Made by a program: the position numbers and the translations under genes
Shown: positions 1 through 62,248 of the stretch, piece by piece
Numbering within the stretch: position 1 is the first letter of the stretch
How the letters are laid out: the number at the start of each line of letters is the position of its first letter
DNA from: Camellia lanceoleosa
Lineage: Eukaryota; Streptophyta; Magnoliopsida; Ericales; Theaceae
Direction: 5' to 3'
Length of the DNA: 64,000 bases
NCBI GenBank assembly: GCA_025200525.1
Contig: CM045770.1
Coordinates: forward strand, 87,816,084 to 87,880,083
The notes under the pieces: generated by a model
Seen by the model: only the letters and a program-made list of their open reading frames with translations
Database searches by the model: none
What the model was told of the DNA's origin: nothing

Positions 1-615
1 AACTCAAAGTGTTCCAAAACTCAATATGCTCGGATCAAAATGTAGCCCTCGACGATCAACGCAACTTTTGTAAAGGCCAAAGGTGAGGAAACAACCCCTA
101 CTAGATCAATACCTAGAGAGAAGGCAAGGTTCTAGTGAGAGAAGCTCTCTAATGGAGGTTTGGAAAAGTAAGAGAGAGAAATGGAGTTGAAAAAGTGATC
201 CAAAAAGTCGGATCTCGATTTTATATAAGAATCGCCCCGCTCGAACGTGGAAACCCCCGCTCGAGCATCACTTACAGACTCCTACTCGAGTGTCCAAACC
301 GCCGCTTGAGCGTTGGATGCACATTCCCAGAACTTTTGCAGAACCAGGTCCCCGCTCGAGCGTCACACACAAACTCCCGCTCGAGCGTCCAACACTGCAG
401 AGGAAAAATACTGGGAGATGGAAAATCACGCTCGAGCGTCAAAATACCCGCTCGAGCGGAGAAGCAACAACGAAAGGCCCGCTCGAGCGTGAAGGGAAAA
501 ATCTGGGCAACTACTTTTGGTTTCTAAGCTCAACCAACCTGTTTCAAACCTGGCCAACACAACCCAAGACTTAAATTCAAAGAGTAAAGGATGTAAACAA
601 GAAATACTTAACCAC
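1..615. repeat. Non-coding segment with CCGCTCGAGCG palindrome cluster
   Basis: This stretch has no supportable gene. Between about 236 and 490 it holds roughly nine copies or near-copies of a palindromic core GCTCGAGC, often extended to CCCGCTCGAGCGT, spaced 20-50 bp apart. A TATA-like TATATAA lies just before the cluster near 222. The segment abuts Athila-like coding sequence that begins near 620, so it is probably the right part of another insertion whose left end is outside the window. That is inference: I cannot see a target-site duplication. Open frames across the cluster only reflect the short repeat and look like Leu-Glu-Arg or Arg-Ser-Ser runs. The same motif recurs in the two solo LTRs at 5.0-5.3 kb and 11.1-11.4 kb. 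Confidence 0.6.
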
Positions 616-619
616 CAAC

Positions 620-1349
620 TCTACAGAGCCCAAGGCACCATATGTGTCTAAGACACCCTTTCCCCAATGCCTTGATATACCATCTCCTTTTAATAAGAAG
701 GCGGGCATCTATGGAAGTATTGATGGAGGTTTTTAAACAAGTAAAAATCAACCTCCCCCTGTTGGAGGTGATTAAGTAAGTACCCTCCTATGCTAAATTT
801 CTGAAGGACCTTTGTACGCAAAAGCGTAAATCTACGACACATGTGTCCCAAAAGGTCATACTCACAGAGCAAGTAAGTTCCATCTTGTTGAATGACACAT
901 CCCCTAAGCTTAAAGACTCGGGTGCCCCAATCATTGTATGCATTATAGAGGACCATTTAATTGATAGGGCTTTATTAGATTTAGGGGCTAGTGTCAATTT
1001 GTTGCCGTACTCTGTGTACGAAGGATTTGGGCTTGGCGAGTTGAAACCCACTACTGTTACTCTCCAGTTGGTTGATCGGACCCTCAAAGTGCCACGTGGC
1101 ATGATTGAGGATATGTTAGTAAAGGTTGATAGGTTTTACTTTCCTGTTGACTTTTTGGTGTTAGCTATGGAACCGGTAGCTAGTTCTAGGAAACAAATCC
1201 CGATGATCTTAGGTCGACATTTCTTGGCTACCGCCAATGCATGCATTAATTGTCGTACCGGGGTTATGGAAGTTTCATTTGGTAACATGCAAGTGAAACT
1301 TAATGTTTTCCAAGCATCCCGACAACCCCATGAGAGAGAGGAGTACTAA
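620..1349 (+). pseudogene. Athila-like gag C-terminus and aspartic protease region
   Basis: The frame from 723 encodes the conserved gag-protease junction (MEVFKQVKINLPLLEVIK) and then a retropepsin-like domain. The active-site motif is LLDLGASVNLLPYS near 975-1020, followed by the Gly-rich MILGRHFLA motif near 1203. The aspartate and the ALLD-G-S layout are the plant retroviral-type protease pattern that matures the Gag-Pol polyprotein. Weak upstream similarity (PYVSKTPFPQ, near 638) is in another frame, so there is a frameshift between 640 and 723. An in-frame TAA at 777-779 and the terminal TAA at 1347-1349 break the frame. The same frame carries on past the second stop into the RT region. 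Family recognition is strong; function is lost. Confidence 0.8.
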
Positions 1350-1352
1350 TTT

Positions 1353-2030
1353 GTGGATGATGTGGATGTGATTGTGGAGGAAGCTTTGCCCTCCATTCTT
1401 GTAGAGGACCTTCTAGAGGCTTGTCTAGCTCATTTTGGGTTCGAAAATTTTGATATTGACGGGTCAGTTGAGGAGGTGAATGCCTTGCTTAATGCTTTTT
1501 CTACATCGGATTTTCCTCCATGGAAAGCTCGGTTTGAGTCACTTCCTCCTCTGTCGAGAGAGCCCGCCATACCATCTTTGGTCACACCACCTACACTTCA
1601 GTTGAAGCCACTCCCGGCCACACTCAAGTATACATTTTTAGGGCCCTAGGATACTTTACCAGTCATCATTGTATCTGACTTGACTGCAGAGCAGGAGAGT
1701 CAATTAATGAATGTTTTCGTGGCACATCGAAGTGCTATAAGGTGGTCGGTGGCTAATTTGAAAGGGATAGATCCCTCCGTGTGCATACATTATATACACC
1801 TAGAAGAGGACACCAAACCTTTTCGTGAAATGCAACGGAGACTTAATCCTAATATGAAAGAGGTGGTGAAAAATGAGGTATTGAAACTGTTAGATGCAGG
1901 TATTATATACCCCATCTCTTATAGCAAGTGGTTGAGTCCCATACAAGTGGTGCCCAAGAAATCGGGTATCACTGTTGTTGGGAATGAGAGAGAAGAGTTA
2001 GTCCCCACACGAACCACTACTAGGTGGTGA
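1353..2030 (+). pseudogene. Athila-like pol linker and N-terminal reverse transcriptase segment
   Basis: This is the same reading frame as the protease part. It carries an acidic linker, then the RT entry region. Near 1750-1980 the entry region contains WSVANLKGIDPSVCIHYIHLEED, the conserved RRLNPNMKEVVKNEVLKLLDAGIIYPIS block and WLSPIQVVPKKSG. These lie directly upstream of the RT palm in this family. The frame is broken by TAG at 1647-1649 and TGA at 2028-2030. The TGA stands where relatives have Arg, which fits CGA to TGA. No frameshift is needed between 1353 and 3314, only point stops. Confidence 0.75.
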
Positions 2031-3314
2031 GTGTGCATCAATTTTAGGAGACTAAATTCCTCGACTAGGAAGGATCATTTTCCCTTACCTTTTATTGACC
2101 AGATCCTAGAGCGGTTAGCGGGCCAGGGTTTCTACTGTTTTCTTGATGGCCATTCGGGGTATAATCAAGTCCCAGTGTACCCCGCTGACCAGGAAAAGAC
2201 CACATTCACATGCCCTTTTGGCACTTTTGCTTACAAGCGCATGCCCTTTGGGCTATGTAATGCACCGGCGACTTTTCAACGGTGTATGATGGCCATTTTC
2301 TCCGATATGGTGGAGAAATTCTTAGAGGTTTTCATGGATGATTTTTCAGTGTTTGGACTGTCTTTTGAGGAATGCTTTAGGAACTTGACTAGAGTGTTGG
2401 AACGATGTACTGAGGCAAACCTAATCTTAAGTTGGGAAAAGAGCCATTTTATGGTTCGTGAGGGTACAGTGTTGGGACACATTGTGTCCCCTCGAGATAT
2501 AGAGGTAGACAAGCCTCAGGTTGACTTCATTGCAGGCCTTTCTCCACCCAATTCCGTGCGTCAAATTAGGTATTTCCTAGGGTATGCAGGTTTTTACTAT
2601 AGGTTCATCAAAGACTTTAGTAAAATATCACGTCCATTGTGTAGTTTACTTATTAAGGATACGCCTTTTATCTTTGATGAGGCATGCTTGAAGGCATTTG
2701 AAACACTGAGAATGGCCCTGACCACCGCCCTAATCATGAAATCACTAGATTGGTCGCTTCCTTTTGAAATCATGTGTGATGCCTTCGACTATGCTGTCGG
2801 GGCTGTGTTGGGCCAAAGGGTCAACAAGGCACTATTTGCTATATACTATGCTAGTCGTACTTTCTCGGATGCACAATTGAACTATACTACCACCGATGAA
2901 GAATTGTTAGCTGTGGTCTTTGCTTTAGGTAAATTCCAGTCTTATCTCCTAGGTTCCAAGGTCATAGTCTTCACTGATCATGCCGCTTTGGGATATTTAT
3001 TATCAAAGAAAGAGACCAAACCTAGGTTAATTAGATGGATTTTGTTGCTTCAGGAATTTGACCTAGAGATCCGAGATAAGAAAGAATATGAGAATGTGGT
3101 GGCAGATCACCTTTCCCGAATCATTGTCGAGTATACTAATGATCCTCTTATTTTGCATGATTCGTTTCTAGACGAGCAACTTCTTGAGCTGTCACGAGTG
3201 AGCCCTCCGTGGTTTGCACATATTGTGAATTACTTGGCCATTGGGCAAATTCTGCAGAATTGGTCTAAGCAAGACAAAGATCGATTCTTTTCGCAGGTCA
3301 AGTATTATTTTTGA
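2031..3314 (+). pseudogene. Athila-like reverse transcriptase and RNase H
   Basis: The RT palm reads from [20 protein letters not shown] through [11 protein letters not shown] and [16 protein letters not shown]. The catalytic box is [10 protein letters not shown], at about residues 99-108 of this 427-residue stretch, so the YXDD motif is FMDD. The thumb and connection are followed by RNase H ([42 protein letters not shown]). The usual Ser/Thr after the first RNase H Asp is Phe here. The segment would copy genomic RNA into cDNA. It ends at TGA 3312-3314, but the same frame continues into integrase, so this stop is a lesion rather than a natural end. Confidence 0.88.
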
Positions 3315-3969
3315 GAGGATCCGGGGTTATTTAAATATTGCTTCGACCAATTGATCCGACGGTGTGTGCTGGAGAGTGAGGTGCATAGCATTCTTACATT
3401 TTGTCATTCTTCTGCATGTGGCAATCATTTTAGTGGGCATAAAACGGCCGCCAAGATTTTACAGAGTGGGTTTTATTGGCCCACAATTTTTAAAGATGCC
3501 CATCAATTTTATAGAACTTGTTTGCGCTATTAGCAAATGGGTTCGATATCTCGGCGTGACATGATGCCAATGTCCCCTATTCTTGTGGTAGAGATATTTG
3601 ATGTTTAGGAGATTAATTTTATGGGACCTTTCTCGTCGTTATTCGGGTTTGAGTATATTCTCTTGGCAGTAGATTATGTGTCTAAATGGGTGGAGGCAAT
3701 AGTTACCCCAACAAACGATCATAGAGTTGTAATCAAAATTTTGCATGAAAACATCTTTAGTCGTTTTGGGTTTCCTAGAGTTATAATAAGTGATCAGGGT
3801 ACGCATTTTTGTAATCGGTTCTTTGAGTCGGTAGTCAAGAAATACTCTATCACTCATAAAGTTGGTACTTCATACCACCCTCAAACTAGTGGCCAAGTGA
3901 AAGTCTCAAATAGGGAGGTAAAACACATAATAGAGAAAACGGTGAGGCCAGATAGGAAAGATTAGTCAC
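3315..3969 (+). pseudogene. Athila-like integrase, zinc-binding and catalytic core, broken
   Basis: The frame continues from RNase H. The HHCC zinc-binding region is recognisable (FCHSSACGNH, AAKILQSGFYWPTIFKDAHQF) but its second Cys pair is damaged: Cys to Tyr, followed by TAG at 3531-3533. Further stops are TAG 3606-3608 and TAG 3963-3965, both where relatives have Trp. In the catalytic core the first Asp is replaced by Asn in INFMGPF, the second Asp is kept in IISDQGTHF, and the Glu of the third position is Lys in GQVKVSNRE. The solo LTR at 3970 interrupts the frame. After the LTR the frame resumes exactly at 6501 when one 5-bp duplication is discounted. Confidence 0.85.
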
Positions 3970-6495
3970 TGTAACAACCCTCACACTATTTACTAATTAA
4001 TGACTGATTGATTACCGATTACTGCTAAATTAAGACTGATAATTGAATTGATCGAAATACTGAATTGGCTGACTGAGATCTGAACGAAATTGATTGCCTG
4101 TATCTGTTTGAATTGCATTTTATCTGTTTGACTGTTTAATTATCTGTTTAGTTCTTATGTTTAAACTATTAATTGAAGGCCTTATCGGCGGCCAAATCCG
4201 AAATTTACTGATGTTTTATACTCGTCATAATTTTTGTGAATTTATGGTGTACTTATATGAAAACTGATTAGGTGTGATTAAATTATATTAAATATTGATC
4301 AATTGCATAGTTGGGCTTATTTACCAAACTAGCCTTTAGTGGGCCACTACCTAACACCTATTGAGCTTTGTACACATTACAACAAAACACTTTGCTCAGC
4401 CATTCTTCTTGCATTAGCTGACCATAGAGAGAGAGAGGGAGAGAATTAAGAGAGAATTGAACTCAACTTGTTGATTTAGCTTGGAACTTGAAGGAATTGA
4501 AGTGTAGATTGTCAATTGAGCTTCTACTCTTGTGTTTGGAGATTTAAGGTAGAATCTATATCTTCTTGTCCATGGATTCAAGTTAATTTGTGTATGGTTC
4601 ATATTAGATAAAAGCCTCAAGCTATAAATTGGAGTTTAAATGTTGCCATGAAGCTCAATTGTTGCATGCATGTGCATATTGATAAGTTTTGAGGTTGTAA
4701 TCCATCATTCCTCACATGCATGTTCATAATGTTGTTATAGTCCATGTTGTCATCATGTTTTTGAAAGATTTGAGCTTATATGAGCGAACATTGAAGCTTT
4801 AATTGGATTTAAATTCATGCATGTTGCATGTTCATCTTGTTCATGAAAAGTGGTTTGAAAATAAGTTTAATTGAAACACCCTTGGGCCTTGATTTCTCAA
4901 ATTGACCCTTGTAACATGTTGTTCTATGAGTTTACATATGTTTTTCCAGAAAATTGGCCCAAGAGGATCGAATTTTATGCATCTAAACTTGATTTGGAAC
5001 TTGGAGCTCAAATCTGGGAATTCTAGATTTTGGTTGTCCGCTCGAGCGGGGGAAGTGCCGCTCGAGCTGGAAAATCGAGCATCCAGTATCTGCACTGCTT
5101 ATCAGTCCGCTCAAGCGGAGGAATGTACGCTCGAGCGGAGGATTGGGTGACACGTTCGAGCGGGCGTCGAACGGGAATTTCACCTATCCAGTACTTTTTG
5201 GTCCGCTCGAGCGGGTAAGTTAACGCTCGAGCGGGATCCCTTTGTTTGCATGTCCGCTTGAGCGGGGAAACCTGCGCTCGAGCGGGGCTCTGTTTCACTG
5301 AAAATTCTGAAAATGTTTTCTGAACACATCTTTGCATCCTCGTCCCATCCTAGGCATTTTTAGGCCTAGTTTAAGACATCTTAACAAGGATTTAGATGTA
5401 GAACACACCAAAGCAAATTAGGAATTAAGTTATGATCTTTCCCAACTGTATAGCTTAGTGTGTGTTCAATCTGTTACTGTGAAGGGTTGGTGACTGAGGA
5501 AATACGCTCTAGCTTATTGTAGCCCAGAATTTTGTGAGTAACAATTGTGTAAAGATATGTTCAACTGTGAATATTTTCCCACTGTTAAATTGAATTGTTT
5601 CTTTGACGATCTTGTTCTTGAATGAATGTATGTCCTATATTACAGGCGTATTGTGGCATCCTTAGCAACTCTTTATCGTTATCTTTATTCTGCTTGAGAA
5701 ATCTCTGCCATTGACGGTCTGTGAATGGATGGCTCCACCGACGGTCTATGAACGGGTGGATTTGTCTAATCGATTCGGTTCCCATGTTGGAAGCACTACT
5801 GTTTACTGATTGATGGCCATTATTTACTGTTTGGTCTGTTAAGACCTGGTCTTCTAAGGCCTACCGTTCATTGTACTGTTACGCTAAGGGATGTACCACA
5901 TATCACTGTATGACTGAATGTCTGAATTACTGAACGACTGAAATACTGATCTAATGAACTGTTTTCATTTTCATTACCGTAAGGACATTCATTCTAAACC
6001 TCCTTACGCATTTTGTTATTCACTGGGTTTTAGCTCATTGTTTATATATATATATATATATATGTAGGTGCTCAGCCACCAGACCGGAGCTAGGAGCGTG
6101 GGTTAGACTCCAGTTTTGTTAAGCTAGCCTATGTGCCTCACTGCGAGGTTCTGAGTTTGCCATGCTATGGCTTTGGGGTGTTTTATTTCTCCCCGTCTGT
6201 CTCCGTACTGTTTTGTGTCACTGTTTAGACTATTATCTACTGTACTGTTATCAAGGGATTAGGCCCCTGTACTGAATGATTGTAAATGTTTGTATAGACT
6301 GTACTGTTCTGAATGTATGAATGCATGAAAAGTCTTTTTGCATACTGTTATCCTGACTCATTGGACATTATTTATTTCTTGTATTGGCTTCCCGAGCCCA
6401 TACTGTTTTCTTGTATTATTGTTAGCGGGCCTTGTAATCTCGGATTCTTGGCGATTCTGATGCTAAACCCATAGGGCCGGGTTTGGGTCGTGACA
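3970..6495 (+). mobile_element. Solo LTR, family 1, 2.5 kb, inserted in integrase
   Basis: The unit begins TGTAACAACCC and ends GGGTCGTGACA, the TG...CA ends expected of an LTR. It is flanked by a perfect 5-bp target-site duplication GTCAC (3965-3969 and 6496-6500). Removing it with one TSD copy restores the integrase frame. No internal coding region is present, so this is a solo LTR left by recombination or an LTR-only unit. It contains the palindrome cluster at 5036-5290 and an AT dinucleotide run at 6046-6063. A related copy lies inverted at 9922-12472 with a different TSD, so the two are independent insertions. The retrotransposon lineage is not assigned. Confidence 0.92.
5036..5290. repeat. 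Cluster of paired CCGCTCGAGCGG palindromes in solo LTR 1
   Basis: About nine copies or near-copies of CCGCTCGAGCGG occur in 250 bp. They come in pairs 15-25 bp apart, of the form GTCCGCTCGAGCGG then NCGCTCGAGCGG. The pairs recur roughly every 70-90 bp with a spacer like ATCCAGTACTTTTTG. The cores carry XhoI-type CTCGAG and several CpG sites; some have one C-to-T or G-to-A change (GCTCAAGC, GCTTGAGC, GTTCGAGC). Confidence 0.85.
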
Positions 6496-6500
6496 GTCAC

Positions 6501-7273
6501 AATGGTTGATTGATGCATTATGGGCCTACCGCATTACTTCTAAGACACCCATTGGGATGTCACCATATAGGGTGATGTTTGGCAAAGCTTGCCATCTCCC
6601 GGTTGAACTCGAGCACCGAGCATTATGGGCCATAAAGAAGTTTAACTTCAATATGGCCGCGGCTGGGCTCAACCGGAAATTGCAACTCAAGCCTCGTTTG
6701 GGAAGCAATCGGTTTAGCCAAAAAGTCAAAAAGTTACTAAATTAGCCAAAAAGCCAACAACCCATACCAAAAAGTCAAAGATTCTTTTTTCTCTCTACTT
6801 TTTGCACATTTTTTCGTAAAAAGCCAAAAAGTCATCCAAACATACTAGTTTTTTTTAGCTCATATTTAAGCCAAATAGCCAAAAAGTTACTAAATTAGCC
6901 TGTTCCCAAAAGAGGCATCAATAAGTTGGAGGAAATCCGAAATGATGCATATGAGAGTTCGAGAATTTTTAAAGCTCAGACTAAAGAATTCTATGACAAG
7001 CACATTAATAGAAAATCCTTTGAATCCTGCCAAAAAGTGTGGCTTTTTAACTCAAAATTGAAACTCTTTCCGGGTAAGCTTAGATCTAGATGGCATGGTC
7101 CCTTTGTGGTTGTTAAGGCATTTATTCATGGTGCCATTGAGGTGCAAGATTCAAAAATTGGCCACACTTTCAAAGTGAGTGGCCAAAGATTGAAGCAATA
7201 TATAGAAGGGATTGGGAATGGGGATATGATTGAGTCCATTGCTTTGATGGACCCTTTTTACTATGATTGCTAG
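6501..7273 (+). pseudogene. Athila-like integrase C-terminal end, split by a MITE
   Basis: The first part, 6501-6690, encodes the conserved WAYR-type block and [20 protein letters not shown]. It stops matching at 6690, where a 226-bp MITE begins. It resumes at 6917-7273 with EEIRNDAYESSRIFKAQTKEFYDKHI, then the GPF-type motif (KLRSRWHGPFVVVKAF) and IEVQD. It ends at TAG 7271-7273, which is close to the natural end of pol in Athila relatives. Without the LTR and the MITE this part is a straightforward continuation of the core at 3315-3969. The protein would direct cDNA insertion; here it is not functional. Confidence 0.85.
6691..6916. mobile_element. Small MITE in the integrase frame
   Basis: This 226-bp AT-rich unit starts GCCTCGTTTGGGAA and ends TTCCCAAAAGAGGC, giving terminal inverted repeats with one mismatch in 14 bp. 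Near each end it carries the same direct motif, AGTTACTAAATTAGCC. TCAA occurs on both sides (6687-6690 and 6918-6921), but an extra base leaves the duplication unclear, so the superfamily is uncertain. The integrase similarity is continuous across the unit, which shows it is an insertion. Confidence 0.75.
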
Positions 7274-8426
7274 ATTGATTTCTTGTTCTTTTTTCTTTCC
7301 CTTCTATTCTATTATGTTTTTCTTTGTTCTTGTTGTGCTTTATTTGCGTCTAGAAGACTTTAAATCCTCTGAAGGTGTAATTCCTTTGGTGTTAGGCATG
7401 CCCGAACGACATCTGACGATCTGGTATAGCCACCTAACCGTGTTTGTAGTGAGTTCCTAGGAGACCAACTGAGACGGTGGAAACTAGAATTCGAATGGCA
7501 AAGTCTAGAACACAAAGGTTTGGAATTTTCGAGACTAGAGTCTGGTTTAAATACCTAGGGGTGTGGAGATTGGTTCAAAACAATCCCGGCTTGAACTCTG
7601 TATGGCAGCCCCATAGGTCGAGTTAGCTTTATGCGCCTCGATTCTGGATACCGAATCAACCTAGTCTGTCACCCTGTTGGAGAATAGGGAAAGTTACAAA
7701 CGCTGTTAGGGAGAAAAGTAGTGCCCGTGATTTTCGGATAAAGATTACACCTTAGTGAGCATTTAATTATTTCTGTGAGCATTTAAAAAACAAAAAAAAA
7801 TCCCGCACGTGCGGCACAAAATGTCAAACCACAAGTGTGTACTGCATTAATTGCAGGTGCGCGAAAAAGTGCATCAACCTAGTCGCATGTGCGGCTTGAT
7901 CCCCGCATGTGCGGAGCATCGTTCCTACCAAAAAAAAATCCTGCACGTGTGGGCCTACCCACGCATGTGCGGCAAATTTTTTTTTCCACCAATTTGCCTA
8001 CTACTTTAAAAGCAGGTGGGCGGGGGTGTGCGGGGTGCGTGTCCGCACGTGCAGCGTACACTCCCGCACGTGCAACAATTCTTTGAAAAAAAAAAAGGAA
8101 AAAAAAAATATAATAATTTAAACTTGCAGATTTTGTTATGTTTTTATTATTATTATTATTTTTTTTAATTTGTTTACTTATTTCAAAAAAAAAATAAAAA
8201 TAAATTTTAAATAAAAATAAATAAATATACTATTTTATTTCTTTATTTATTTTTATTTCAAAAAAAATTGAAAATATAAAAAAATATATATAAAAAAAAA
8301 ATCGCAATTTTTATTTATTTATTTTTCTATGTTTGTTTTTGAAAAATAATAATAATAATAATATCTAACCTAGACCCACTTTTCTTCTCATCACTCTCAC
8401 AGATTTTGTCTCTCTCCCTACCTCTC

Positions 8427-8461
<35 letters not shown>

Positions 8462-9185
8462 CAACCCCATAACCCACAAACTTATCCATCCCCACCATCA
8501 CCATCTTCTTCTTTCATTTTCTTCCTTCTTTTTCTTCTTCCTTTTTCCTCACCACCACCATCTCACCATCGGCATCACTATTTCCTCTCCGTCTGACGAA
8601 TCTCCGGCAACTACCATTTTTTTTTCGGCAAATCTCCATTCTTTCTCTCTCTTTCTCCACTTTTCCAACGTAAACTTTACTTTTTGTTTAGATTTGTGGG
8701 TGTAGGAGTAGAGAAGTAGAGTTTTGATTTTATTTTTTTGTTCAAATCTTGATCTATGTTTCATACTTAAAAAAATAAAAAAATAAAATAAAAAATAAAA
8801 AATCCAGGCAGCAAAAAGATGACATCCGCACGTGCGGCCCAATCCGGAGCACGTGCAGCACCTGTGCATTCAAAAAAAATACAAAAAAATAAAAATAAAA
8901 TAAAAATTCTAATACATAACTTTTCTAATTCATTATATTTTCTATCTATTTATTTAGTTGTTTAGATTTAGTTTATTGTCTTAGTATTATTTGTTAGTTT
9001 AATTTAATACTGGTAAAAATGTTAATATGTAAGTTTAAATTATTCTATTTCATTTTGTAAAAAAAAAAAAAATGATGAGAATTGCATGTGGTACATCAGT
9101 GGGCAGACTTGTGCTTTAATATTTTATTTGATTCTCATGCTAGTTTCACGGGTCTGTGTCTACTTGTTTTTGGTGTGTGCAGGAT
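7274..9185. repeat. Post-pol spacer with CCGCACGTGCGG palindromes and microsatellites
   Basis: No gene is supported here. Between 7800 and 8075, and again at 8825-8865, there are about nine copies or variants of CCGCACGTGCGG, a 12-bp palindrome with a CACGTG core. Variants include CGCATGTGCGG and GCACGTGCAGC. They are often paired 10-20 bp apart, as in the CTCGAG clusters elsewhere in the window. A (TATC)n run lies at about 8430-8461, and long A/T tracts occupy 8085-8350 and 8765-8900. In Athila relatives this is untranslated DNA between pol and the downstream ORF. Confidence 0.7.
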
Positions 9186-11099
9186 ATGAGTAGACGGCTA
9201 TCCATCTGGGCTTCCAAAAAGGCCAGAGGTTCCACCTCCTCGGCACCACCGCCACCACCGTTACCACCATCCTCACCACCACTATTGGGTGACTTACTAC
9301 AGCCGGAGTGGGCTTCATGGTTGCTTCACAAGCTCACGCAGTTCAACATTTCATATTTTCAGCATGACCTGGCCACTTCTTGGGCTGTTAAGCAGCTCTA
9401 ACTCCGGCAGCAGTTAGGCCTTTGCACGGTTACAACGCCGACTTATCCTCGTCTGGTATGACTCTTCTACCAAAACCTGTATGAGTCACTCACTGAGAAC
9501 GAACTGCTATCTATTATTGATGGTCATCTCGTTTGCGTTACCGAATTCATGATTGCCAACGTGTTAGGGTTCTTTTCCAAGATGGAACACTAGCCTTTCT
9601 CGAAAGTTGAGGACCAACAACCCATACATAGCCTCATCCGACAATACTTCCTGGGAGCCCACGGTGACGCGAGTTATACATGCTTGTGCCGGAGCAAGCT
9701 GCATGGTCGCTTGCTGTTCATTGATTCTGTGGTACACAAGAACGCCTTTCCACTGGGGCATAAAGCTGAGCGCCGTTTGGAGTTTGTTCGAGTCTTACAT
9801 GGGTATCAGCATGGCTATCAGGTCCCGCTTGCGCATATCATCTGGATACATATGCGTAAATTTCTACGAGAGGCAGTTCGACCTCAACCTATGCAGAACC
9901 TGACTTGGCCCCTGCCATTTGTGTCACGACCCAAACCCGCCCCTGCAGGTTTAGCACCGTAATTGGCCAGTAATCCGTGGATTACCAAAGGCCTCTGAAC
10001 AGATTAGCAAATAATAAGGGGTTGCGGAAGCAATAGTACAAAATAGACAAGGTCCAATGAGCTGTGATAATGTACACGGGACAGAACATTTCAAAACTTA
10101 TTTATATATATACAAACATGCCAGTCCAGATACACAATATTTACAAGGTATTTATAGAATGTACTTCCCAAGATCTGACTTTACAAAGAGTACACAAGGA
10201 CTAGCACGAGTACAAAAAACAGCCATGGCATTAGGCTTCGTTTGGAACCTTCTCGGGAGGCATAACAGTTGGCTGACAAAACAAAACAGACGGCTGTCAA
10301 CTTTGGTCCTGGTCATGTGCTGGCTTACCTACATACATAATATAAACCGTGAGCGAAAGCCCAGTGAATAATAATAGAGTAAAGGGTTTCAATGAATGAG
10401 TTCGTACAAGTTTAGAAATCGTAGTTCAGTTTCATATCAAATCATAGTTTATCTAGATGATATACAGACAGAAATCATAAATCATGATTAAGTTTACATG
10501 ATACATCCATTAGCCTTAACAGAACAGAGCAGAACGTATACACGTGGGGGTTACGAATAACCAGTTCCATAAAGGAACCTCCAGATCCGGGTAATAGGAC
10601 AGAACAGAAGCTGAGCCCCCATGACAGGTCCTCTGGTACGAGTAACAGAGTGCAGACAGATATAAGTTCCATAAAGGAACCTCCGATATCGGGTAACAGC
10701 TAACAGATATCACATGATGCTAAGGATGTCACGAATACATATCAGAAATTGAACAATCATTCATTGTACAGAACATATAATTTCGAAAAACAGATCTTGT
10801 TTTATCACACAGAAAATAGATACAGTTGAACATAACTTTACTAAATTATTACTCACAGTTAGCCTTGAACTAGAAAGACGGAGCAGATTGATCACATGAC
10901 ACGCGGCACGTGACCTACATAACACATAACAGATACACATTTGAAACACACATTCTAATTGCACAAAACTCATGTCGTCAGTTCTTTGTGTGTTTCTAAC
11001 CTTAAATCCTCACTATAGAGTCTTAAACATGGCCTGGGAATGCCTAGGATGGAATGAGGATGCAAAAATTCACTTTAAGACACTTTTCAAAATTTTGCT

Positions 11100-11440
11100 G
11101 AAATAGGGGTCCCGCTCAAGCGTGTCTTTCTTCGCTCGAGTGGACATGCAAACAAAAGGGATCTGCTCGAGTGTGTATTTCTCTGCTCGAGTGGACTGTA
11201 AACTACAGTAAAAGTACTGGATGCTTGAAATTCACGCTCGATGGGCGCTCGATACCCGCTCGAGCGTGAGACACAAGTCCTCGCTGGAGCGTGCATTACC
11301 TCGCTCGAGCGGACTGTAAACATGTGAAAAGTACTGGATACACGCATTTCACGCTCGAGCGTTACTTTACACGCTCGAGCAGACTGCATGAACTCAGTGT
11401 GTACGCTCGAGCATGGAGTTCCCCGCTCGAGCGTGAGTCC
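11100..11440. repeat. CTCGAG palindrome cluster in solo LTR 2
   Basis: About 13 copies or variants of CGCTCGAGCG lie in 340 bp, again in pairs separated by 12-20 bp. The pairs alternate with a spacer containing AAAAGTACTGGATNC, which is the reverse complement of the spacer in the copy at 5.1 kb. The pair-plus-spacer unit is therefore an ancestral feature of the LTR family. Confidence 0.85.
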
Positions 11441-12021
11441 AAAATCTGGAATTCCCAGATTTGAACCTCAAGCCCAAAACTCAACTTTTAAAGCATCAAT
11501 TTCGATCCTCTTGGGCTAATTTTCTGGAAAACTCTTGTAAACTCATAGTATAACATGTTTTGAAGATCAATTTGCAAAATTAAAGCCCAAAGGTAGTTCA
11601 ATTAAACATAATTTCAAGGAAAACTTCAAGAACATAAATTAAATATAACATGCATGAATTCTCATGACTTCTACTGCTCCAAAACATGATCCAAAACAAG
11701 ATTAAGCTCAAGAATAGGATGAATTCATGGACTATAACAAAAATGTGGACATGCATGTGGAAATTCATGAAGAACAACTCCAAAATCCAAAATATGTGCA
11801 TGCATGCATGAATTCACTCTCAAATCCAACTCTTAGAACCAATTCTAGACTTTAAACTCTAATCTTCCATGAACCATGCAAGAAATAAATCTTAAATTCA
11901 CAATTGAAAGGGGAATCTCCTACCTTAAACCTTGAATTCCAAGTCTAGGAGCTCAAAAATGCAATTCTTTTTGATTTCTTCTAAGTCTCCAAGTTAAATC
12001 CCTTGTTGAACTCAAATTCTC

Positions 12022-12064
<43 letters not shown>
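12022..12064. repeat. (TC)n microsatellite
   Basis: An uninterrupted run of about twenty CT/TC dinucleotides sits inside the solo LTR. The other LTR copy has only a short GAGAGAGAGA run at the corresponding place near 4427-4445, so the run has expanded here. Confidence 0.9.
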
Positions 12065-12066
<2 letters not shown>

Positions 12067-13037
12067 GGTCCAAGAAATGGCTGAGGAGATGTTGTGAAAT
12101 GTGTATAATTTGAGTTCAAAGCAATGGTACCTAAGTGGCCCACTAATGACATTAATGTAATAATTCAAACTAGTGTGATTTAATGTTATTTAATCTAATT
12201 TACACATTCCAAATCAAATTTCAATTAAACCCTACTATAAAATCACATAAATTCTAACTAGCACATAACACTAATCAATTTCGAAATCGAGCGCCGATAA
12301 GGCTTTCGATTCGTAGTTCAAAGTCAGAACACGAACAGATCGTTTTATGGCAAACAGATAAAAACACAAAGATAATGCAATATATATGCAATTTAATAAC
12401 AAATCTCTCCTAATCTACTATTAGACATAATTAGGTGTGAATTAACATTAATCAGAGGTTGGGGTTATTACAATTTGCCAACATGCTCACACTTGTCTTC
12501 GAGCTGAACGGCCTCCCCATTGTTTTGACTGAGGAGATTGATCAAGCTTATTCGACTTTCGGGCAGTGGGAATAACAGCATAGCATATCTCGCTTTCCAC
12601 AGTAGATTGGTGCCCCGGTTGACGAGGCCCTGGACCCTGTTCACGACCAACCAGCTCATCCTGCCTCCCTTGTGCCTCCCTAAGGGGACTCATTCTACAT
12701 GACTCACGAGGAGTACTTACAACTTTAGCACTCTGTGGATCAGGTCCACAGTACTCTTTGTGATCACCACCAGAGTCTTATGGGGTTACACACGGATTTT
12801 CAGGCGCATCGAGACTATTCTTAGGCAGCCTTTGACCAGCTACACGCCCGCCAGCTCGACATTCAGCAGTCAGTTACATCACTGCAAGCTGACTTTTATA
12901 CATATCGAGAGTTAAGCCAGCAGCGTTTTGATCAGCTCGGCCAACGGGTTCAGGATGAAGCCTTTGAGACACGATCTTTGATGAACGCCTTGTTTGCCAA
13001 GCATTTCCCGTCACCATCGCCACTGGATCCTCCCTAG

Positions 13038-14537: not shown

Positions 14538-15640
14538 TGATTAAGGCCGAATTGTACAACATTGAGACCGTTAATTAGGATCTCTTAGTTTTATTTGCTT
14601 GTCAAATTGTATACTTTATGTGTGTTTAATGTCAATCAGGTTGTACATAGTCGAAGCAGAAAATGGGCAAAAAGACAGAATTTGGGGAGAAAATAGATTC
14701 CCACATGTGCGTTGACTTTGTCCGTACGTGCGTTGACTTTTTCGCACGTGTATTGACTTTTTTTGAAAAAACGTGCCCGATGTTTTAAACTTGTTTGAAA
14801 GATAGCAGAAGTATAAATTGGCAAGAAAAATGTTGGATTAGGGTTCTGAAATTATTTTTGCAAGGAAAGAGAGGCTAGTGTTTCAAGGGGTGATTTTCTC
14901 CAAAAAGCTTGAAGAACACTTCCATGGGGTCTTCTTCCTCATCTTCTTTCTCTTCCCACTCCTCCATGAGTAGCTAGTCTTCTTTTCTAAGGTTTTGATA
15001 AAACCCTAACTATGTAATTAGTTTTTCTTTTTGATTTTCAATTATGTAAAGGTTTAAATAATTGTATGGTGTTTTAGAAGTTATATATATATATATATAT
15101 ATTCTATTATTTCTTCAAGTATTCGGCTTTCTGTGATTGTTGAATGTTTTCCATACAAGAGTTTTCGATTCTTTCACATTCAAGGTATGAGACGAACCAT
15201 ACTACGAGGGATGAGTCGTGTCACTACCCTAGTTTAGAGTGAATGATTCGTACTACTTGAGATGGTTCGTATTCGTATATTGAACGTGATGATTTTCTTG
15301 TTAAATGCTTTGAACTTGTAGTTGCGAAGCATTATTCCGTTTGAACCATAACATAATTGATTTCAATTGGAAACCCTATTTACGTGACTTGTGGTGGACT
15401 CTTTGCCATATATTTTTTCCCAAATCAGTAAATCCAATTTTATTTATAATTGATAATTTAATTACTTAGTTTAATTTATTTGTTATTAAATTAGGTTATG
15501 AACAATCAATCTTTTCATTAAAATTAATTTAGGAATTTAACAATTAAATTAGTTTAATTTCACAATTGTCCCTGTGGATCAATATCTAAACTTGTCATTA
15601 TTCTAAAAAAATTTGATATAATTTTATATTTAATTTTGGT
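14538..15640 (+). mobile_element. Probable 3' LTR of the Athila-like element
   Basis: The segment starts TGATTAAGGCCGAATTG after the polypurine tract. It carries a TATA box TATAAAT at 14812-14818 and a downstream leader with GAGTAGCTAGTCTTC and GGTTTTGATAAAACCC, features of Athila LTRs. Three CACGTG/CATGTG palindromes (14700-14760) match those in the post-pol spacer, which ties this LTR to the same element. The right end is approximate because the partner LTR and TSD are outside the window. Confidence 0.55.
14812..14818 (+). promoter_or_regulatory. TATA box of the Athila-like LTR
   Basis: TATAAAT lies about 275 bp into the presumed LTR and about 100 bp upstream of a pyrimidine-rich leader. 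It is a plausible start signal for the retroelement transcript. Confidence 0.5.
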
Positions 15641-25066: not shown

Positions 25067-25680
25067 ACATTTTTTATTTCGTCACTAATAAAAATTAAAA
25101 AATTTGAAAATAAGGGTACTATTTTCTTCCGAAATTTTTTCTTTTTAGTAACAAGTCCCTGCGCATTTCAATAACCTGTTCAATAAAATATCTATTACAA
25201 ATCAATACAAAAATCTATTCATTTTCATAAATATCACAATCAAATTTCAACACTATCCACAAAAATACAATATGAGCTTCATGCAGATTATAAACATGTC
25301 TCCTAATATCCACAAAAAACGTCTACTAATATCCACAAAAATATAATATCAACCGCATGCGGATTACCAAACACATCTCCTAATATCCAACAAAAAATAT
25401 GTCTACTAATATCAACAAAAATAAAATATCAAGGGCGGATTACCAAACATGCCCTGTAATACCAACAAAAATATAAAATTTACAACGCAACCAAAATACA
25501 TGTAAGGTAATATGAACAAAAACACAAAATGAGCTACCATCTGCCCTCTAAATTACCAAACATGTCCATATCAAATCTCGAATCTGCATAAAAATGGAAA
25601 AAAAAAAAAAAAAAAAAAATGCAAGTTAGACAATTATTATCTTATCCATAAATTATACAATTTAACATGCATTTTTCGAA

Positions 25681-28430
25681 TTAGTTTTCAAATCGGGAGT
25701 CCAGTTCAAGTTCCGTTAGTTTCCACAACTTACATTGGTTCCTCCTGACGTGTTTGAGGTGTTCCCTGGGCCGTTCCGTGGCTATTACACGATTTTGGCC
25801 CCCGAAGGTCTATTTTCAAGGTTAAGTGTGAAAAAGTGTAATTTTGGACGTAGTTTTCAAACCGGGAGTCTTGTGCTAGTTCCGTAAGTTTCCACAACTC
25901 ACATTGGTCTATCCCGAAGTGTTTGACATGTTCCCCGGGCCGTCTTGTGGCTGTTGCATGATTTTAGCTTCCGATGGCCTACTTTTCAAGCTTAAGTGTG
26001 AAAAAGTACATTATTGGACTTAGTTTTCAAACTGAGAGTCCCATACTAGTTTCGTAAGTTTCCACAACTCATATTAGTCCCTCCCGAGGTATTTGAGGTA
26101 TTCCTTAGGCCGTCTCGTGGCTGTTGCATGATTTTGGCCTCCGGTTGCCTATTTTGAAGCTTAAGTGTGAAAAAGTGCAATTTTGGACTTAGTTTTCAAA
26201 TCGGGAGTCCCGTGCTAGTTTTGTAAGTTTTCACAACTCACATTGGTCCCTCCCGAGGTATTTGAGGTGTTTCCCGGGCTGTCTCGTGGCTGTTGCATGA
26301 TTTTGGCCTCTAGTGGCCTATTTTGAAGCTTAAGTGTAAAAAAGTACATTTTTTGACTTAGTTTTCAAATTGGGAGTCCCGTGCTAGTTCCGTAAGTTTT
26401 CAAAACTCACATTGGTCCCTCCTGAGGTGTTTGAGGTGTTCCTTGGGCCGTCTCATGGCTGTTGCACGATTTTGGCCTCCGGTGGCCTATTTTGAAGCTT
26501 AAGTGTGAAAAAGTGCATTTTTCAACTTAGTTTTCAAACCGGGAGTCCGTGCTAGTTTCGTAAGTTTCCACAACTCACATTGGTCCCTCCTAAGGTGTTT
26601 GAGGTGTTACCCGGACTGTCTCATGGCTGTTGCACGATTTTGGCCTCCGATGGCCTATTTTTGAAGCTTAAGTGCGAAAAAGTACATTTTTCGACTTAGT
26701 TTTCGAACCGGGAGTCCCGTGCTAGTTCCGTAAGTTTTCACAACTTACTTTGGTCCCTCTCGAGGTGTTTGAGGTGTTACCCGGGCCGTCTCGTGACTGT
26801 TGTATGATTTTGGCCCCCGAAGGCCTATTTTCAAGCTTAAGTGTGAAAAAATACATTTTTGGACTTAGTTTTCAAACTGGGAGTCCCGTGCTAGTTCCGT
26901 AAGTTTTCAAAACTCACATTGGTCCCTCCCGAGGTGTTTGAAGTGTTTCCGGGGCCGTCTCGTGGCTATTACACGATGTTGGCCTCCGACAGCCTATTTT
27001 CAAGCTTAAGTGTGAAAAAGTGCATTTTTGAACATAGTTTTCAAACCGGGAGTCCCGTGCTAGTTCTGTAAGTTTTCACAACTCACATTGGTCCCTCCCG
27101 AGTTGTTTGAGGTGTTATCCCGGCTGTCTCATGGCTGTTGCACGATTTTGGCCTCCGATGGTCTATTTTTTAAGTTTAAGTGTGAAAAAGTGTATTTTTG
27201 GACTTAGTTTTCGAACCAGGAGTCCCGTGCTAGTTCCGTAAGTTTCTACAACTTACTTTGGTCCCTTCCAAAGTGTTTGAGGTGTTACTTGGGCCGTCTC
27301 ATGGCTGTTGTATGATTTTGGCCCCCGAAGGCCTATTTTCAAGCTTAAGTGTGAAAAAATGCATTTTTGGACTTAGTTTTCAAACTGGGAGTCCCGTGCT
27401 AGTTCCGTAAGTTTCCACAACTCACATTGGTCCCTCCCAAGGTATTTGAGGTGTTTCTCGGGCCGTCTCATAGCTGTTACATGATGTTGGCCTCCGACGG
27501 CCTATTTTCAAGCTGAAGTGTAAAAAAGTGTATTTTTGGACATAGTTTTCAAACCGGAAGTCCCGTGCTAGTTCCGTAAGTTTTCACAACTCACATTGGT
27601 CCCTCCCGCGATGTTTGAGGTGTTACCCGGGCCGTCTCATGGCTGTTGCACGATTTTGGCCTCCGATGGCCCATTTTTGAAGCTTAAGTGTGAAAAAGTG
27701 CATTTTTCGACTTAGTTTTCGAATCGGGAGTCCCGTGCTAGTTCCGTAAGTTTTTACAACTTATTTTGGTCCCTCCCGAGGTGTTTGAGGTGTTACCCGG
27801 GCCGTCTCGTGGCTGTTGCATGATTTTGGCCCCCGAAGGCCTATTTTCAAGCTTAAGTGTGAAAAAATGCATTTTTGGACTTAATTTTCAAACTGGGAGT
27901 CCCGTGCTAGTTCCGTAAGTTTCCACAACTCACATTGGTCCCTCCCAAGGTGTTTGAGGTGTTTCCGGGGCTGTCTCGTGGCTGTTACACAATGTTGGCC
28001 TCCGATGGCCTATTTTCAAGCTTAACTGTGAACAAGTGCAGTTTTGGACTTAGTTTTCAAACTGGGAGTCCCGTGCTAGTTCCGTAAGTTTCCACAACTC
28101 AGATTGATTCCTCCTGAGATGTTTGAGGTGTTTCCTGGGCCGTCTCATGGCTATTGCACGATTTTGGCCCCCAAAGGCCTATTTTCAATCTTAAGTGTGA
28201 AAAAATACATTTTTGGACTTAGTTTTCAAACCGGGAGTCCCGTGCTAGTTCTCGTAAATTTTTACAACTTATGTTGGTCCCGCCTGACGTGTTTGAGGTG
28301 TTTCTCGGGCCATCTCGTGGCTATTGCACGATTTTGGCCCCCGAATGCCTTTTTTCAAGCTTAAGTGTGAAAAAATACATTTTTGGACTTAGTTTTCAAA
28401 CCGGGAATCCCATGTTAGTTCCGTAATCAC
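25681..28430. repeat. Tandem array of about sixteen 169-bp units
   Basis: The phrase TAGTTTTCAAA starts at 25682, 25851, 26021, 26190 and 26359 and continues at 169-170 bp steps to about 28391. Each unit then reads like GGGAGTCCCGTGCTAGTTCCG, a CAACTCACATTGGTCCCTCC block, GTGTTTGAGGTGTT, GGCCGTCTCGTGGCTGTTGC and GGCCTATTTT before TTAAGTGTGAAAAAGT. Units differ by point changes and 1-bp indels. Open frames within the array are by-products. The unit is close to nucleosomal and plant satellite length. The array lies wholly inside the CACTA element. Confidence 0.95.
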
Positions 28431-50229: not shown

Positions 50230-51660
50230 CCACCAATCACGCATATCGATGCATGATGGCGAGGCGATTACACAACTCAATATTGGGATGAATACACATG
50301 AATGCTCGAAAAAATGGGATGCCTCGAAATCGTGCCCGCGCATAAGCCGAGGCGATCTTTGAAGATGAAAATCGGATAAAACCGCAAAGTGCCTCGAAGT
50401 GCGTGCCTGGTAGCATAAGCCGAAGATGAAACCAAAATGGAGATCGAGATGGCGGAGTGCCTCGAGATCGTGCACGGGCACGCGAGCAAAGCGATGATGT
50501 ACGATGCAAAATCAGATAAAATCGAAGTGCCTCGAAATGCGTGCACACGGACACGCAAACCGAGGCGATGATGTAATGAGAAAAACGGATAAAACCAAAG
50601 TGCCTCGAAAAGCGTGCCCACAGGCGCGCAAACCGAGGCGATGACAAAATCAGATGAAATGTCAGATAAAATCGAAGTGCCTCGAAATGCGTGCCCACAG
50701 GCGCGCAAATCGAGGCGATGATGAAAGATGAAAGTCGGATAAGACCGAAGTGCCTCAGCAGCGTGCCTGGTAGCGCCGAAATCGGCGGCGATGAAAGAAA
50801 AAATCGGATAAGGCAGAAGTGCCTCGAAGCGCGTGCCTGGTGCGCCGTCGGCGACGATGAAAGAATGAAAATCGGATAAGGCAGAAGTGCCTCAAACGCA
50901 TGCCCACGTAGCGCCAAATCGAGGCGGCGATGAAAGAATGAAAATCGGATAAGGCAGAAGTGCCTCGCAGCGTGCCTGGTAGCGCAAATCGGCGACGATG
51001 AAAGAATGAGAATCGGATAAGACGAAGTGCCTCAAAGCAGCGTGCCTGGTAGCGCCGTCGGCGGCGATGAAAGAATGAAAATCGGATAAGGCCAAGTGCT
51101 TGAAGCAGCGTGCCTGGCGCGCCGTCGGCGATGATGAAAGAATGAAAATCGGATAAGGCCGAAGTGCCTCGGCAGCGTGCCTGGTAGCGCGCAAATTGAA
51201 GCGACGATGAAAGAATGAAAATCGGATAAGCGAAGTGCCTCGAAGCAGCGTGCCTGGTAGCGCAAATCGAGGCGACGATGAAAGAATGAAAATCGGATAA
51301 AACCGAAGTGCCTCGAAACGCGTGCCCACAGGCGCGCAAATCGAGGCGATGATGAAATGCAATGAAATGGCATACGGAATGCAATGATGGACTTACACCA
51401 ACATGGGAGAGCCTCAGCTCACTCACATAGGAGGCCGTCGGATAAAAACGAAGTGCCTCGAAATGCGTGCACACGGGCACGCAAACCGAGGCAATGCAAA
51501 AAATGATACAAATGGCATACGAAAATGCAACGATGGGCTTACACCAACATGGGAGAGCCTCAGCTCGCTCACATAGGAGGCCGTCGGATAAAAACGAAGT
51601 GCCTCGAAATCGATACAGCACGCATAACCGAAACAATGCAAAATGATCTGAATGGCAGGG
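50230..51660. repeat. Tandem array, about 70-bp units, within the long LTR
   Basis: GAAGTGCCTCGAAATGCGTG-type starts recur near 50525, 50597, 50672, 50747, 50817, 50885, 50958, 51024, 51093, 51161, 51233 and 51306 (period 66-75 bp). Two longer, 146-bp steps follow, to 51450 and 51596, containing GCTTACACCAACATGGGAGA. Units include GCCCACAGGCGCGCAAATCG or GCCTGGTAGCGC and GATGAAAGAATGAAAATCGG. Confidence 0.92.
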
Positions 51661-61035: not shown

Positions 61036-61077
61036 AAATGGCCAAGGACTTTTGAGAGGGAGCAGATCTCTGGCCGG

Positions 61078-62079: not shown

Positions 62080-62245
62080 TTGCTTCTATTGCGTGAGCCA
62101 TGGGCTGTGCCAAGTCCGCACCAGCCAAATCAACCGGGCAAACTGGATGCGTTCCGGGGGCAAACTCCGCCACAATGTCTGCAAGAGCTTGAGCTTTGAT
62201 TGCGGTGCGCGGGCGAAACTTGATGTCATACTGTCCTAGTTCCAC
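62024..62245 (-). pseudogene. Tat-like pol segment between the two RNase H domains
   Basis: The frame AVELGQYDIKFRPRTAIKAQ, then ALADIVAEFAPG is the conserved end of the Ty3-type RNase H region followed by an Ala/Pro-rich linker. It is in frame with the RT part but separated from it by a TAG at 62249-62251 where relatives have Trp. It overlaps the next frame because of a frameshift near 62050. Confidence 0.8.
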
Positions 62246-62248
62246 GGC

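What the first reader, a model, noticed from the sequence alone, without database searches (positions are those of the whole stretch)
1..11440. Clusters of 12-bp palindromes CCGC-TCGA-GCGG in three loci
Three clusters (about 236-490, 5036-5290 and 11100-11440) each pack 9-13 near-perfect CCGCTCGAGCGG palindromes into 250-340 bp. In the two solo LTRs they come in pairs 12-25 bp apart, with a shared spacer (AGTACTTTTNG or its inverse). Random DNA or ordinary satellites do not give short palindromes held constant while the spacers diverge. Possible explanations are a protein-binding array, a recombination or RNA-hairpin element, or a small mobile palindrome that inserts next to itself.
Basis: partly seen in the sequence, partly recalled or inferred. 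Interest (0 to 1): 0.75.

Follow-up and report, generated by a model that had tools for sequence, protein, structure and literature searches.

The report
Paired palindrome arrays in retrotransposons
Jumping genes (LTR retrotransposons) of one large plant genome carry tens of thousands of copies of a 12-letter mirror-symmetric DNA word, often set in pairs exactly two helix turns apart, which looks like a protein-docking array that helps switch the elements on; related arrays were known from another retrotransposon group, but not in this form.

Summary
CCGCTCGAGCGG occurs 50,091 times in the window's 3.0 Gb plant genome, against 43 for the reversed word. It is neither a plain satellite nor a mobile palindrome, but the core of homologous arrays in LTRs of at least two chromovirus-related Ty3 groups, including both solo LTRs and an LTR piece at 1-~603. 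Palindromes pair exactly 20 bp apart: 62,164 exact pairs genome-wide against 862 at 21 bp. Spacers diverge (66 distinct of 77). In 21 copies of one LTR array, changes other than C>T/G>A are 7.7 times rarer in palindromes than in spacers.

The element that received the solo LTRs carries another version, CCGCACGTGCGG (9,298 versus 11), paired at 20-21 bp. These two symmetric words make up 96% of 61,891 CCGCNCGNGCGG sites. In the cluster-1 family a TATA-like box mostly starts 8-9 bp after the array.

Best reading: a promoter-proximal array for an unknown dimeric DNA-binding protein, built like the palindromic motifs of Sireviruses, but in Ty3 elements and with rigid two-turn pairing. New variant of a known kind; binding is inferred, not shown.

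The parts
1..603 (-). LTR piece of a second chromovirus-related family, cut off by the window start; holds cluster 1
   Evidence: 72-73% alike over 1-603 to L011 and L012, where chromovirus-like pol lies nearby; strand taken from the pol orientation in L011; right edge approximate
237..490 (-). Cluster 1: 8 palindromes, mostly CCGCTCGAGCGT on the + strand; pairs at 20 bp 237/257 and 428/448
221..227 (-). TATA-like box TATATAA starting 9 bp beyond the array
   Evidence: at 8-9 bp also in 5 other arrays and at 44 bp in a sixth
3970..6495 (+). Solo LTR A, 2,526 bp, 5-bp target duplication GTCAC (3965-3969 / 6496-6500)
5038..5285 (+). Cluster 2: 9 palindromes; pairs 5038/5058, 5107/5127, 5203/5223, 5254/5274, all 20 bp; CpG observed/expected 1.32 against 0.47 in the rest of the LTR
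9922..12472 (-). Solo LTR B, 2,551 bp, target duplication ATTTG (9917-9921 / 12473-12477)
11112..11434 (-). Cluster 3: 12 palindromes at up to 3 mismatches; 20-bp pairs 11112/11132, 11163/11183, 11281/11301, 11351/11371, 11403/11423
2034..2480 (+). Reverse transcriptase piece of the Ty3-type element that received the solo LTRs
   Evidence: Pfam RVT_1; 30-41% identical to the array-bearing RTs in comparisons of over 100 sites, the 30% being the frame-broken L005
3621..3962 (+). Integrase core piece of the same element, cut by LTR A
   Evidence: Pfam rve
7803..8075 (+). Array of CCGCACGTGCGG palindromes between pol and a later ORF; pairs 7883/7903 and 7941/7961 (20 bp), 8043/8064 (21 bp)
8826..8858 (+). 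Further CACGTG-type pair (21 bp)
14701..14753 (+). CACGTG-type pair (21 bp) and a third, more degenerate copy, probably in the LTR of the host element (LTR start about 14538, inferred from a polypurine run, not tested)
   Evidence: Tandem Repeats Finder also calls a 20-bp period here, 2.7 copies at 14707-14761

Best explanation
The clusters are cis-regulatory arrays of Ty3-type LTR retrotransposons. Each 12-bp palindrome (core CGC-W-CG-W-GCG) is a site for a homodimeric DNA-binding protein. Two sites 20-21 bp apart (two helix turns, same face) form one composite site for a dimer of dimers. Several composites stacked in 250-350 bp make an enhancer-like block that drives the LTR promoter and, in the host element, probably also an internal promoter upstream of its last ORF. 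Shown: the arrays, the fixed spacing, slower change in palindromes than in spacers, two symmetric half-site versions, occurrence in at least three Ty3 groups, and a TATA-like box 8-9 bp from the array in one family. Inferred: that a protein binds, that it is dimeric, and that it activates transcription. The protein is unknown. For the CACGTG version a BZR1- or bHLH-like factor is a plausible candidate from the motif alone.
For: Excess over the reversed word: 50,091 vs 43 and 9,298 vs 11. With the two variable positions left free, 59,389 of 61,891 CCGCNCGNGCGG sites carry one of two symmetric combinations. Spacing: 62,164 exact 10-mer pairs at 20 bp vs 862 at 21 bp; locally 77 of 168 neighbour distances up to 130 bp are exactly 20, 1 is 21, none 19. 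Host-element version: 55 of 124 neighbour distances are 20 or 21, none 19 or 22. Constraint: changes other than C>T/G>A at 0.0076 in palindromes vs 0.0586 in spacers over 21 copies, 1 of 247 mask shifts as extreme; 0.040 vs 0.177 in the host-element copies, 0 of 272 shifts; transversions 0.046 vs 0.178 between LTR A and LTR B. Of 139 array sites in the 20 ten-kb loci taken without regard to positions 5 and 8, 137 have T and A there. Place: 7 of 26 arrays have a TATA-like box within 60 bp, where about 1.5 would be expected from 0.029 per side; 6 of the 7 start 8-9 bp after the last palindrome. In four LTRs of two families the first matched core lies 1,037-1,070 bp from the LTR start, with 20-23 CpG per 250 bp after 750 bp with 0-1 per 250 bp.
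Against: No binding, expression, methylation or small-RNA data could be consulted. 19 of 26 arrays have no TATA-like box within 60 bp, among them LTR A, LTR B and L013/L014, and the TATA pattern was chosen after seeing the sequences. The arrays are homologous to each other, so spacing, constraint and TATA counts are not independent events. The outermost bases (1 and 12) are not kept symmetric in the second palindrome of a pair: 32% complementary, 35% expected; first palindrome 55%, 41% expected. Longer gaps fit helical phase only loosely: best period 9.75 for neighbour distances, 18.5 for all chromovirus distances and 20.25-20.5 for the host-element set. One of two direct-repeat copies in L009 has a badly damaged array although its flanks are nearly identical, so sequencing error or real damage is concentrated here.
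Confidence: 0.6

Rival explanations
1. RNA-level element: two palindromes 8 nt apart fold into a 10-12 bp hairpin with a short loop, and self-complementary stems let genomic RNAs dimerise or be packaged.
For: Any two copies can pair, and the loop length is nearly fixed at 8-9 nt. The outer hairpin pair (P1 position 1 with P2 position 12) is complementary in 53% of 77 pairs, 45% expected from composition.
Against: A hairpin needs complementary arms, not self-palindromic ones, yet the 10-bp core of each arm is itself palindromic. The inner closing pair (P1 position 12 with P2 position 1) is complementary in 18% of 77 pairs against 32% expected. Of 82 core changes in 78 chromovirus pairs 2 are restored between arms and 0 within an arm; of 99 in 54 host-element pairs 4 and 4. 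Neither kind of compensation shows, but most changes look like decay after insertion, so the test is weak.
Confidence: 0.15
2. Host-silencing or anti-silencing landing pad: CpG-dense palindromes attract methylation, or are protected from it, through a sequence-specific factor, like VANC targets in VANDAL elements or small-RNA hotspots in Sirevirus palindromes.
For: Arrays are CpG-rich in CpG-poor LTRs. C>T and G>A dominate the changes, and mostly at the CpG positions, which points to methylated inserted copies. VANC targets are short motif arrays that differ between related elements. Sirevirus palindromes are described as small-RNA hotspots.
Against: CpG density alone does not explain the T and A kept at positions 5 and 8, the 20-bp pairing or the TATA-adjacent place in one family. 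No VANC-like gene was looked for.
Confidence: 0.2
3. Concerted evolution or slippage of a tandem repeat without function.
For: Arrays gain and lose modules: LTR B aligns with an extra pair relative to LTR A.
Against: Homogenisation would have to stop at the edges of a 10-bp core: position-1 bases differ by place in the array, and spacers are 0.404 alike against 0.901 for cores, the cores having been picked by similarity. Nearly the same spacing recurs with a different centre in other elements.
Confidence: 0.04
4. Small mobile palindrome that inserts next to itself.
For: Only the clustering.
Against: Palindromes align at the same places in 21 copies of the LTR A array, and arrays lie in homologous LTR contexts.
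Confidence: 0.01

Closest known systems
Palindromic repeated motifs (RM) of Sirevirus (Ty1/copia) LTRs, Bousios et al. 2010, PMC2829016 (abstract, section 9 and passages seen)
   Same: Short CpG-rich palindromes in many copies per element; clusters mark CpG islands in the LTR, with a TATA box on average 37 bp after the island; extra copies between pol and the envelope gene; centres differ between elements. The window's host element has an array between pol and a later ORF, and the cluster-1 family has the TATA-adjacent place.
   Different: Here the elements are Ty3. The paper calls the motif Sirevirus-specific and absent from the classic elements it compared, which were Ty1/copia. The core here is CGC-W-CG-W-GCG rather than CGG-CCG, and pairs are locked at 20-21 bp; I saw no such spacing rule in the passages read.
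'Plastic' 5' CpG islands in LTRs of Del (Tekay) chromoviruses, Cruz et al. 2014, PMC4029996 (outline with abstract, and passages seen)
   Different: The paper found the 5' island in all its groups except the eudicot group I and the monocot group II, and the word palindrome does not occur in its text. Here the CpG peak consists of paired palindromes, in what is probably a eudicot (not verified).
VANC target motifs of VANDAL DNA transposons, Hosaka et al. 2017, PMC5735166 (passages seen)
   Same: Arrays of a short motif in non-coding parts of a transposable element, evolving by repeat gain and loss, with different motifs in related elements.
   Different: The VANC21 motif YAGTATTAY is not a CpG palindrome and belongs to a DNA transposon; no element-encoded binding protein is known here and none was looked for.
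BZR1 sites: BRRE CGTG(C/T)G and G-box CACGTG (PMC10165856, passages seen)
   Same: The 10-bp core CGCACGTGCG contains the G-box and, on both strands, the BRRE CGTGCG.
   Different: The five times more frequent CTCGAG version contains neither; binding was not tested.

Membership tests
Sirevirus-type palindromic RM | Element is a Sirevirus (Ty1/copia) | tested here: not met
   RVT_1, rve and a C-terminal chromodomain match in the L013/L014 element; RVT_1 and rve in the host element: Ty3-type
Sirevirus-type palindromic RM | At least 8 copies of one short palindrome per element, in the LTR | tested here: met
   8, 9 and 12 copies in the three window clusters; the other arrays printed hold 3-11, so not all reach 8
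Sirevirus-type palindromic RM | CGG-CCG core | tested here: not met
   Order here is CCG...CGG with core CGC-W-CG-W-GCG
Sirevirus-type palindromic RM | Cluster forms a CpG island | tested here: met
   CpG observed/expected 1.25-1.32 in the three clusters vs 0.40-0.53 around; 1.05 in the CACGTG cluster. No island caller was run
Sirevirus-type palindromic RM | TATA box shortly after the cluster | tested here: inconclusive
   7 of 26 arrays, those of the cluster-1 type; none near LTR A, LTR B and L013/L014 arrays
Sirevirus-type palindromic RM | Extra copies upstream of an envelope-like gene | tested here: inconclusive
   CACGTG arrays lie between pol and a later ORF (7803-8858), but the ORF piece 9594-9920 had no Pfam match
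Chromovirus (Del/Tekay) | Integrase followed by a chromodomain | tested here: met
   PF00385 E=1.7e-4, 21.9 bits, below the curated cut-off of 25.1, at residues 477-522 of the 537-residue integrase ORF; tested on L013/L014 only
Chromovirus (Del/Tekay) | Placement in the Del/Tekay clade by an RT tree | not tested
   Only pairwise RT identities were computed; the clade name is recalled from LTR length and architecture
Simple tandem repeat / satellite | Head-to-tail units diverging evenly | tested here: not met
   Tandem Repeats Finder at score 50 lists no array at the three clusters, though it lists one at 14707-14761; palindromes and spacers diverge at different rates
VANC-type target array | Element-encoded protein that binds the motif | not testable with these tools
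   No binding data
BZR1/G-box site | Contains CACGTG or CGTG(C/T)G | tested here: inconclusive
   Met by the CACGTG version, not by the CTCGAG version (letters of the words themselves; motifs). Binding not testable here

The most novel reading that the evidence does not exclude
Large plant LTR retrotransposons of both superfamilies share a convergent cis-code. A half-site from a small alphabet (here CCGCTC or CCGCAC) is doubled into a palindrome, two palindromes are set two helix turns apart, and composites are stacked before a promoter. Families change the half-site symmetrically on both sides. Mixed arrays (L073, L077, L079) with CTC/GAG, CAC/GTG and hybrid CAC/GAG sites are the intermediate steps in switching from one dimeric host factor to a related one (homodimer to heterodimer to homodimer), possibly to escape silencing or to change host tissue.
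Probability: 0.3. Interest if true: 0.8.

Novelty: new variant of a known kind. Interest (0 to 1): 0.62.

Why it matters
Palindrome arrays in plant retrotransposon LTRs were described as a feature of Sireviruses, and the authors could not name what binds them. About 60,000 exact sites, read here in Ty3 families wherever the element could be told, with a rigid pair spacing and two symmetric half-site versions, suggest a general design rather than a lineage oddity. They also give a sharp probe, a 32-bp composite site, for finding the factor by DNA-affinity methods. If that factor activates the elements, it would help explain how such families came to fill a 3 Gb genome. The hybrid sites offer a rare look at how a dimer-binding site may change specificity.

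Tried and rejected
Cloning-linker artefact: CCGCTCGAGCGG is, from memory, also a commercial XhoI linker. Rejected, since it lies in decayed LTR contexts tens of thousands of times.

Paper search for the letters CGCTCGAGCG with 'retrotransposon' gave one unrelated hit, listing only. A scan of viral contigs gave two matches, both in GC-rich contigs (61% and 65%) and read as chance. Helical phase of the longer gaps is only suggestive. A scan for other clustered palindromes in the 20 loci and the window gave, besides CTCGAG, AT-rich and CATGCATG-type clusters; 158 seeds passed, against 65 in five shuffles together. The RNA covariation test was negative for both models. The ORF piece 9594-9920 had no Pfam match. 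Random background stretches of the genome could not be fetched, so I have no unbiased estimate of how many element families carry arrays, nor whether Ty1/copia elements of this genome do. No tree of reverse transcriptases was built. The counts of the hybrid CCGCACGAGCGG and of 19-bp pairs did not complete. The species (perhaps Camellia, from 3.0 Gb and about 15 large contigs) was not verified. In L009 the limits of the two direct repeats are uncertain, because the right copy runs to the end of the fetched stretch and the gag ORF runs into the left copy.

Full report
What is there. The window lies in a plant genome of 3.0 Gb (that it is a plant follows from its elements and gene-free repeats, the species was not verified). 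Its first 15 kb is a nest: a Ty3-type element (RT piece 2034-2480, integrase piece 3621-3962), Athila/Tat-like by recall only, has received two solo LTRs of about 2.5 kb, LTR A at 3970-6495 and LTR B at 9922-12472 in reverse, each with a 5-bp target duplication. A piece of another LTR lies at 1 to about 603 and is 72-73% alike to L011 and L012.

More than chance. In the window 15 matches with up to one mismatch stand against a mean of 0.02 in shuffles. In the genome the exact 12-mer occurs 50,091 times and its reversed control 43 times. With the two inner positions left free, CCGCNCGNGCGG occurs 61,891 times against 295 for the control: 50,091 T..A (80.9%), 9,298 A..T (15.0%) and 2,502 for the other 14 combinations together. 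Two symmetric words therefore account for 96%.

Grammar. In the first 20 listed places on contig 1 plus the window, 77 of 168 neighbour distances up to 130 bp are exactly 20 bp, one is 21 and none 19. Of the 20 places, L010 holds a single palindrome at the two-mismatch limit, the others two or more. Genome-wide, exact cores 20 bp apart number 62,164 (control 0) and 21 bp apart 862 (control 0). The 8-bp spacers are diverse: 66 distinct among 77, mean identity 0.404, against 0.901 for the 20 core letters, which were picked by similarity. Longer gaps cluster near 30-32, 50-52 and 70-73 bp, with a minority at 25, 35 and 45, and hold a recurring CCAGTAYTTTT-like stretch in either orientation. A jitter test favours helical phase (0 of 300 at 10.25 bp in both sets), but the arrays are homologous and the best periods were 18.5 bp in the chromovirus set and 20.25-20.5 in the host-element set, so I treat this as suggestive only.

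Constraint. Twenty copies of the LTR A array were aligned with the window's: 20 of the 39 other places scored (40 scored of 5,890 candidates), best first, leaving out one that is probably the second LTR of an element already taken. L029 is the segmental duplicate of the window's own copy and so not independent. Changes other than C>T or G>A occur at 0.0076 per cell in palindromes and 0.0586 in spacers; 1 of 247 mask shifts was as extreme. C>T and G>A are somewhat commoner in palindromes than in spacers (0.042 vs 0.029), as expected for methylated CpG, though miscalls at methylated CpG could add to it. Between LTR A and LTR B transversions are 0.046 in palindromes shared by both, 0.178 in spacers and 0.223 outside. 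In the 20 ten-kb loci, sites chosen without regard to positions 5 and 8 have T and A there in 137 of 139 cases.

Lineages. L013 and L014 together contain an element with two LTRs (95% alike) and ORFs for gag, protease, RT, RNase H and integrase (RVT_1 and integrase domains); the integrase ORF ends in a chromodomain match below the curated cut-off. L009 holds two direct repeats of about 2.5 kb (96% alike) around 1.1 kb with a gag ORF, probably a shortened relative; its limits are uncertain. RTs near arrays fall into two groups (L013, L018 first piece; L011, L016, L017) that are 68-74% identical across groups; the frame-broken L005 RT stands apart at 40-54%. The window's cluster 1 belongs with the L011 group; window 1-900 aligned with LTR A only over a 36-bp stretch inside the array.

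A second version. The host element carries CCGCACGTGCGG between pol and a later ORF and in its probable LTR. Twenty loci drawn from the 46 other matches were read, the segmental duplicate left out; some loci hold two of the matches. With the window's linker and LTR piece, neighbour distances are 20 (29 times) or 21 (26 times) out of 124, never 19 or 22, with a second peak at 80-83 (21 times). Changes other than C>T/G>A: 0.040 in palindromes, 0.177 in spacers, 0 of 272 shifts as extreme; L048 and L052 are near-duplicates. A sample taken by the word alone (14 of the first 16 listed loci) gave 31 of 46 neighbour distances between 19 and 22, 21 of them 21 bp; against the window's linker, LTR and pol 8 of the 14 had no match, 5 only matches of 17-37 bp, and L071 a 198-bp match to the probable host LTR. 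So CCGCACGTGCGG arrays also lie in sequences unlike the window's host element; what those elements are was not determined. L073, L077 and L079 mix the two words with hybrid CAC/GAG-type sites, exact in L079.

Place in the LTR. In LTR A, LTR B and both LTRs of L013/L014 the first matched core lies 1,037-1,070 bp from the LTR start, and the array bin has 20-23 CpG per 250 bp after three bins with 0-1 (which stopped before the L009 repeats). These LTRs have no TATA-like box within 60 bp of the array. In the cluster-1 family they do: of 26 arrays, 7 have TATAT[ATC]A within 60 bp reading away from the array on one side, where about 1.5 would be expected (0.029 per side, two sides); 6 of the 7 start 8-9 bp after the last palindrome, one at 44. 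The pattern was chosen after seeing the sequences and the arrays are related. Where pol shows the element's direction (L011, L012, L016) the box is on the downstream side.

How it most likely works. Core dyad symmetry, a fixed two-turn pair distance with free spacer sequence, symmetric replacement of both half-sites between versions, and a place before a TATA-like box in one family fit a site read by a dimeric protein, two dimers side by side. That a protein binds and activates is inference. For the CACGTG version, BZR1-type factors are candidates, since the core contains the G-box and CGTGCG. For CTCGAG I have no candidate. RNA hairpins remain possible: compensatory changes are nearly absent, but the test is weak because most changes look like decay after insertion.

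What is known. Bousios et al. 2010 described palindromic repeated motifs in Sirevirus LTRs, forming CpG islands close to the TATA box and repeated upstream of the envelope gene, and called them Sirevirus-specific (abstract, section 9, passages). Cruz et al. 2014 reported CpG islands in Del LTRs of most monocot groups and none in their eudicot group; the word palindrome does not occur in the text (outline and passages). A 2016 paper on maize Sirevirus palindromes and host epigenetic response was seen only as a citation and is not held. Passages of papers on Retand elements and on nesting of LTR elements gave nothing on such arrays. My searches (open-licence papers only) listed no report of paired palindrome arrays in Ty3 LTRs, but most hits were seen only as listings.

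Verdict. It works like the Sirevirus motifs and is not a member of that family: superfamily and core differ. It is a new variant of a known kind.

Noticed in passing
G000:C13:88160410-88163456 versus window 4960-8090: A second copy of the window's nest (LTR A inside the Ty3 element) lies about 340 kb away at 92-95% identity in the two pieces compared: probably a segmental duplication.
   Followed up: no
L009:3768-6337 and 7441-10000: Two direct-repeat (LTR) copies are nearly identical around the palindrome array, but the array itself is shredded by small losses in one of them; one-base losses also occur in arrays elsewhere. Sequencing or assembly error at methylated, hairpin-prone DNA, or real local damage.
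   Followed up: partly
window 4663-4830 and 11649-11880; also L008, L014, L015, L020, L023: CATGCA/TGCATG words (RY-like, seed-factor sites by recall) cluster a few hundred bp from the palindrome arrays in several LTRs; in LTR A and LTR B they lie upstream.
   Followed up: no
L073, L077, L079: Arrays mixing CTCGAG, CACGTG and hybrid CACGAG-type palindromes.
   Followed up: partly
window 25668-28426: Tandem array of a 169-bp unit, about 16 copies.
   Followed up: no
window 50308-51657: Tandem repeats of about 73-150 bp whose unit contains inverted repeats.
   Followed up: no
window 60253-63385, minus strand: A further Ty3-type pol region; the scan for clustered palindromes found only a CTCGGCCGAG cluster at 59555 nearby.
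   Followed up: no
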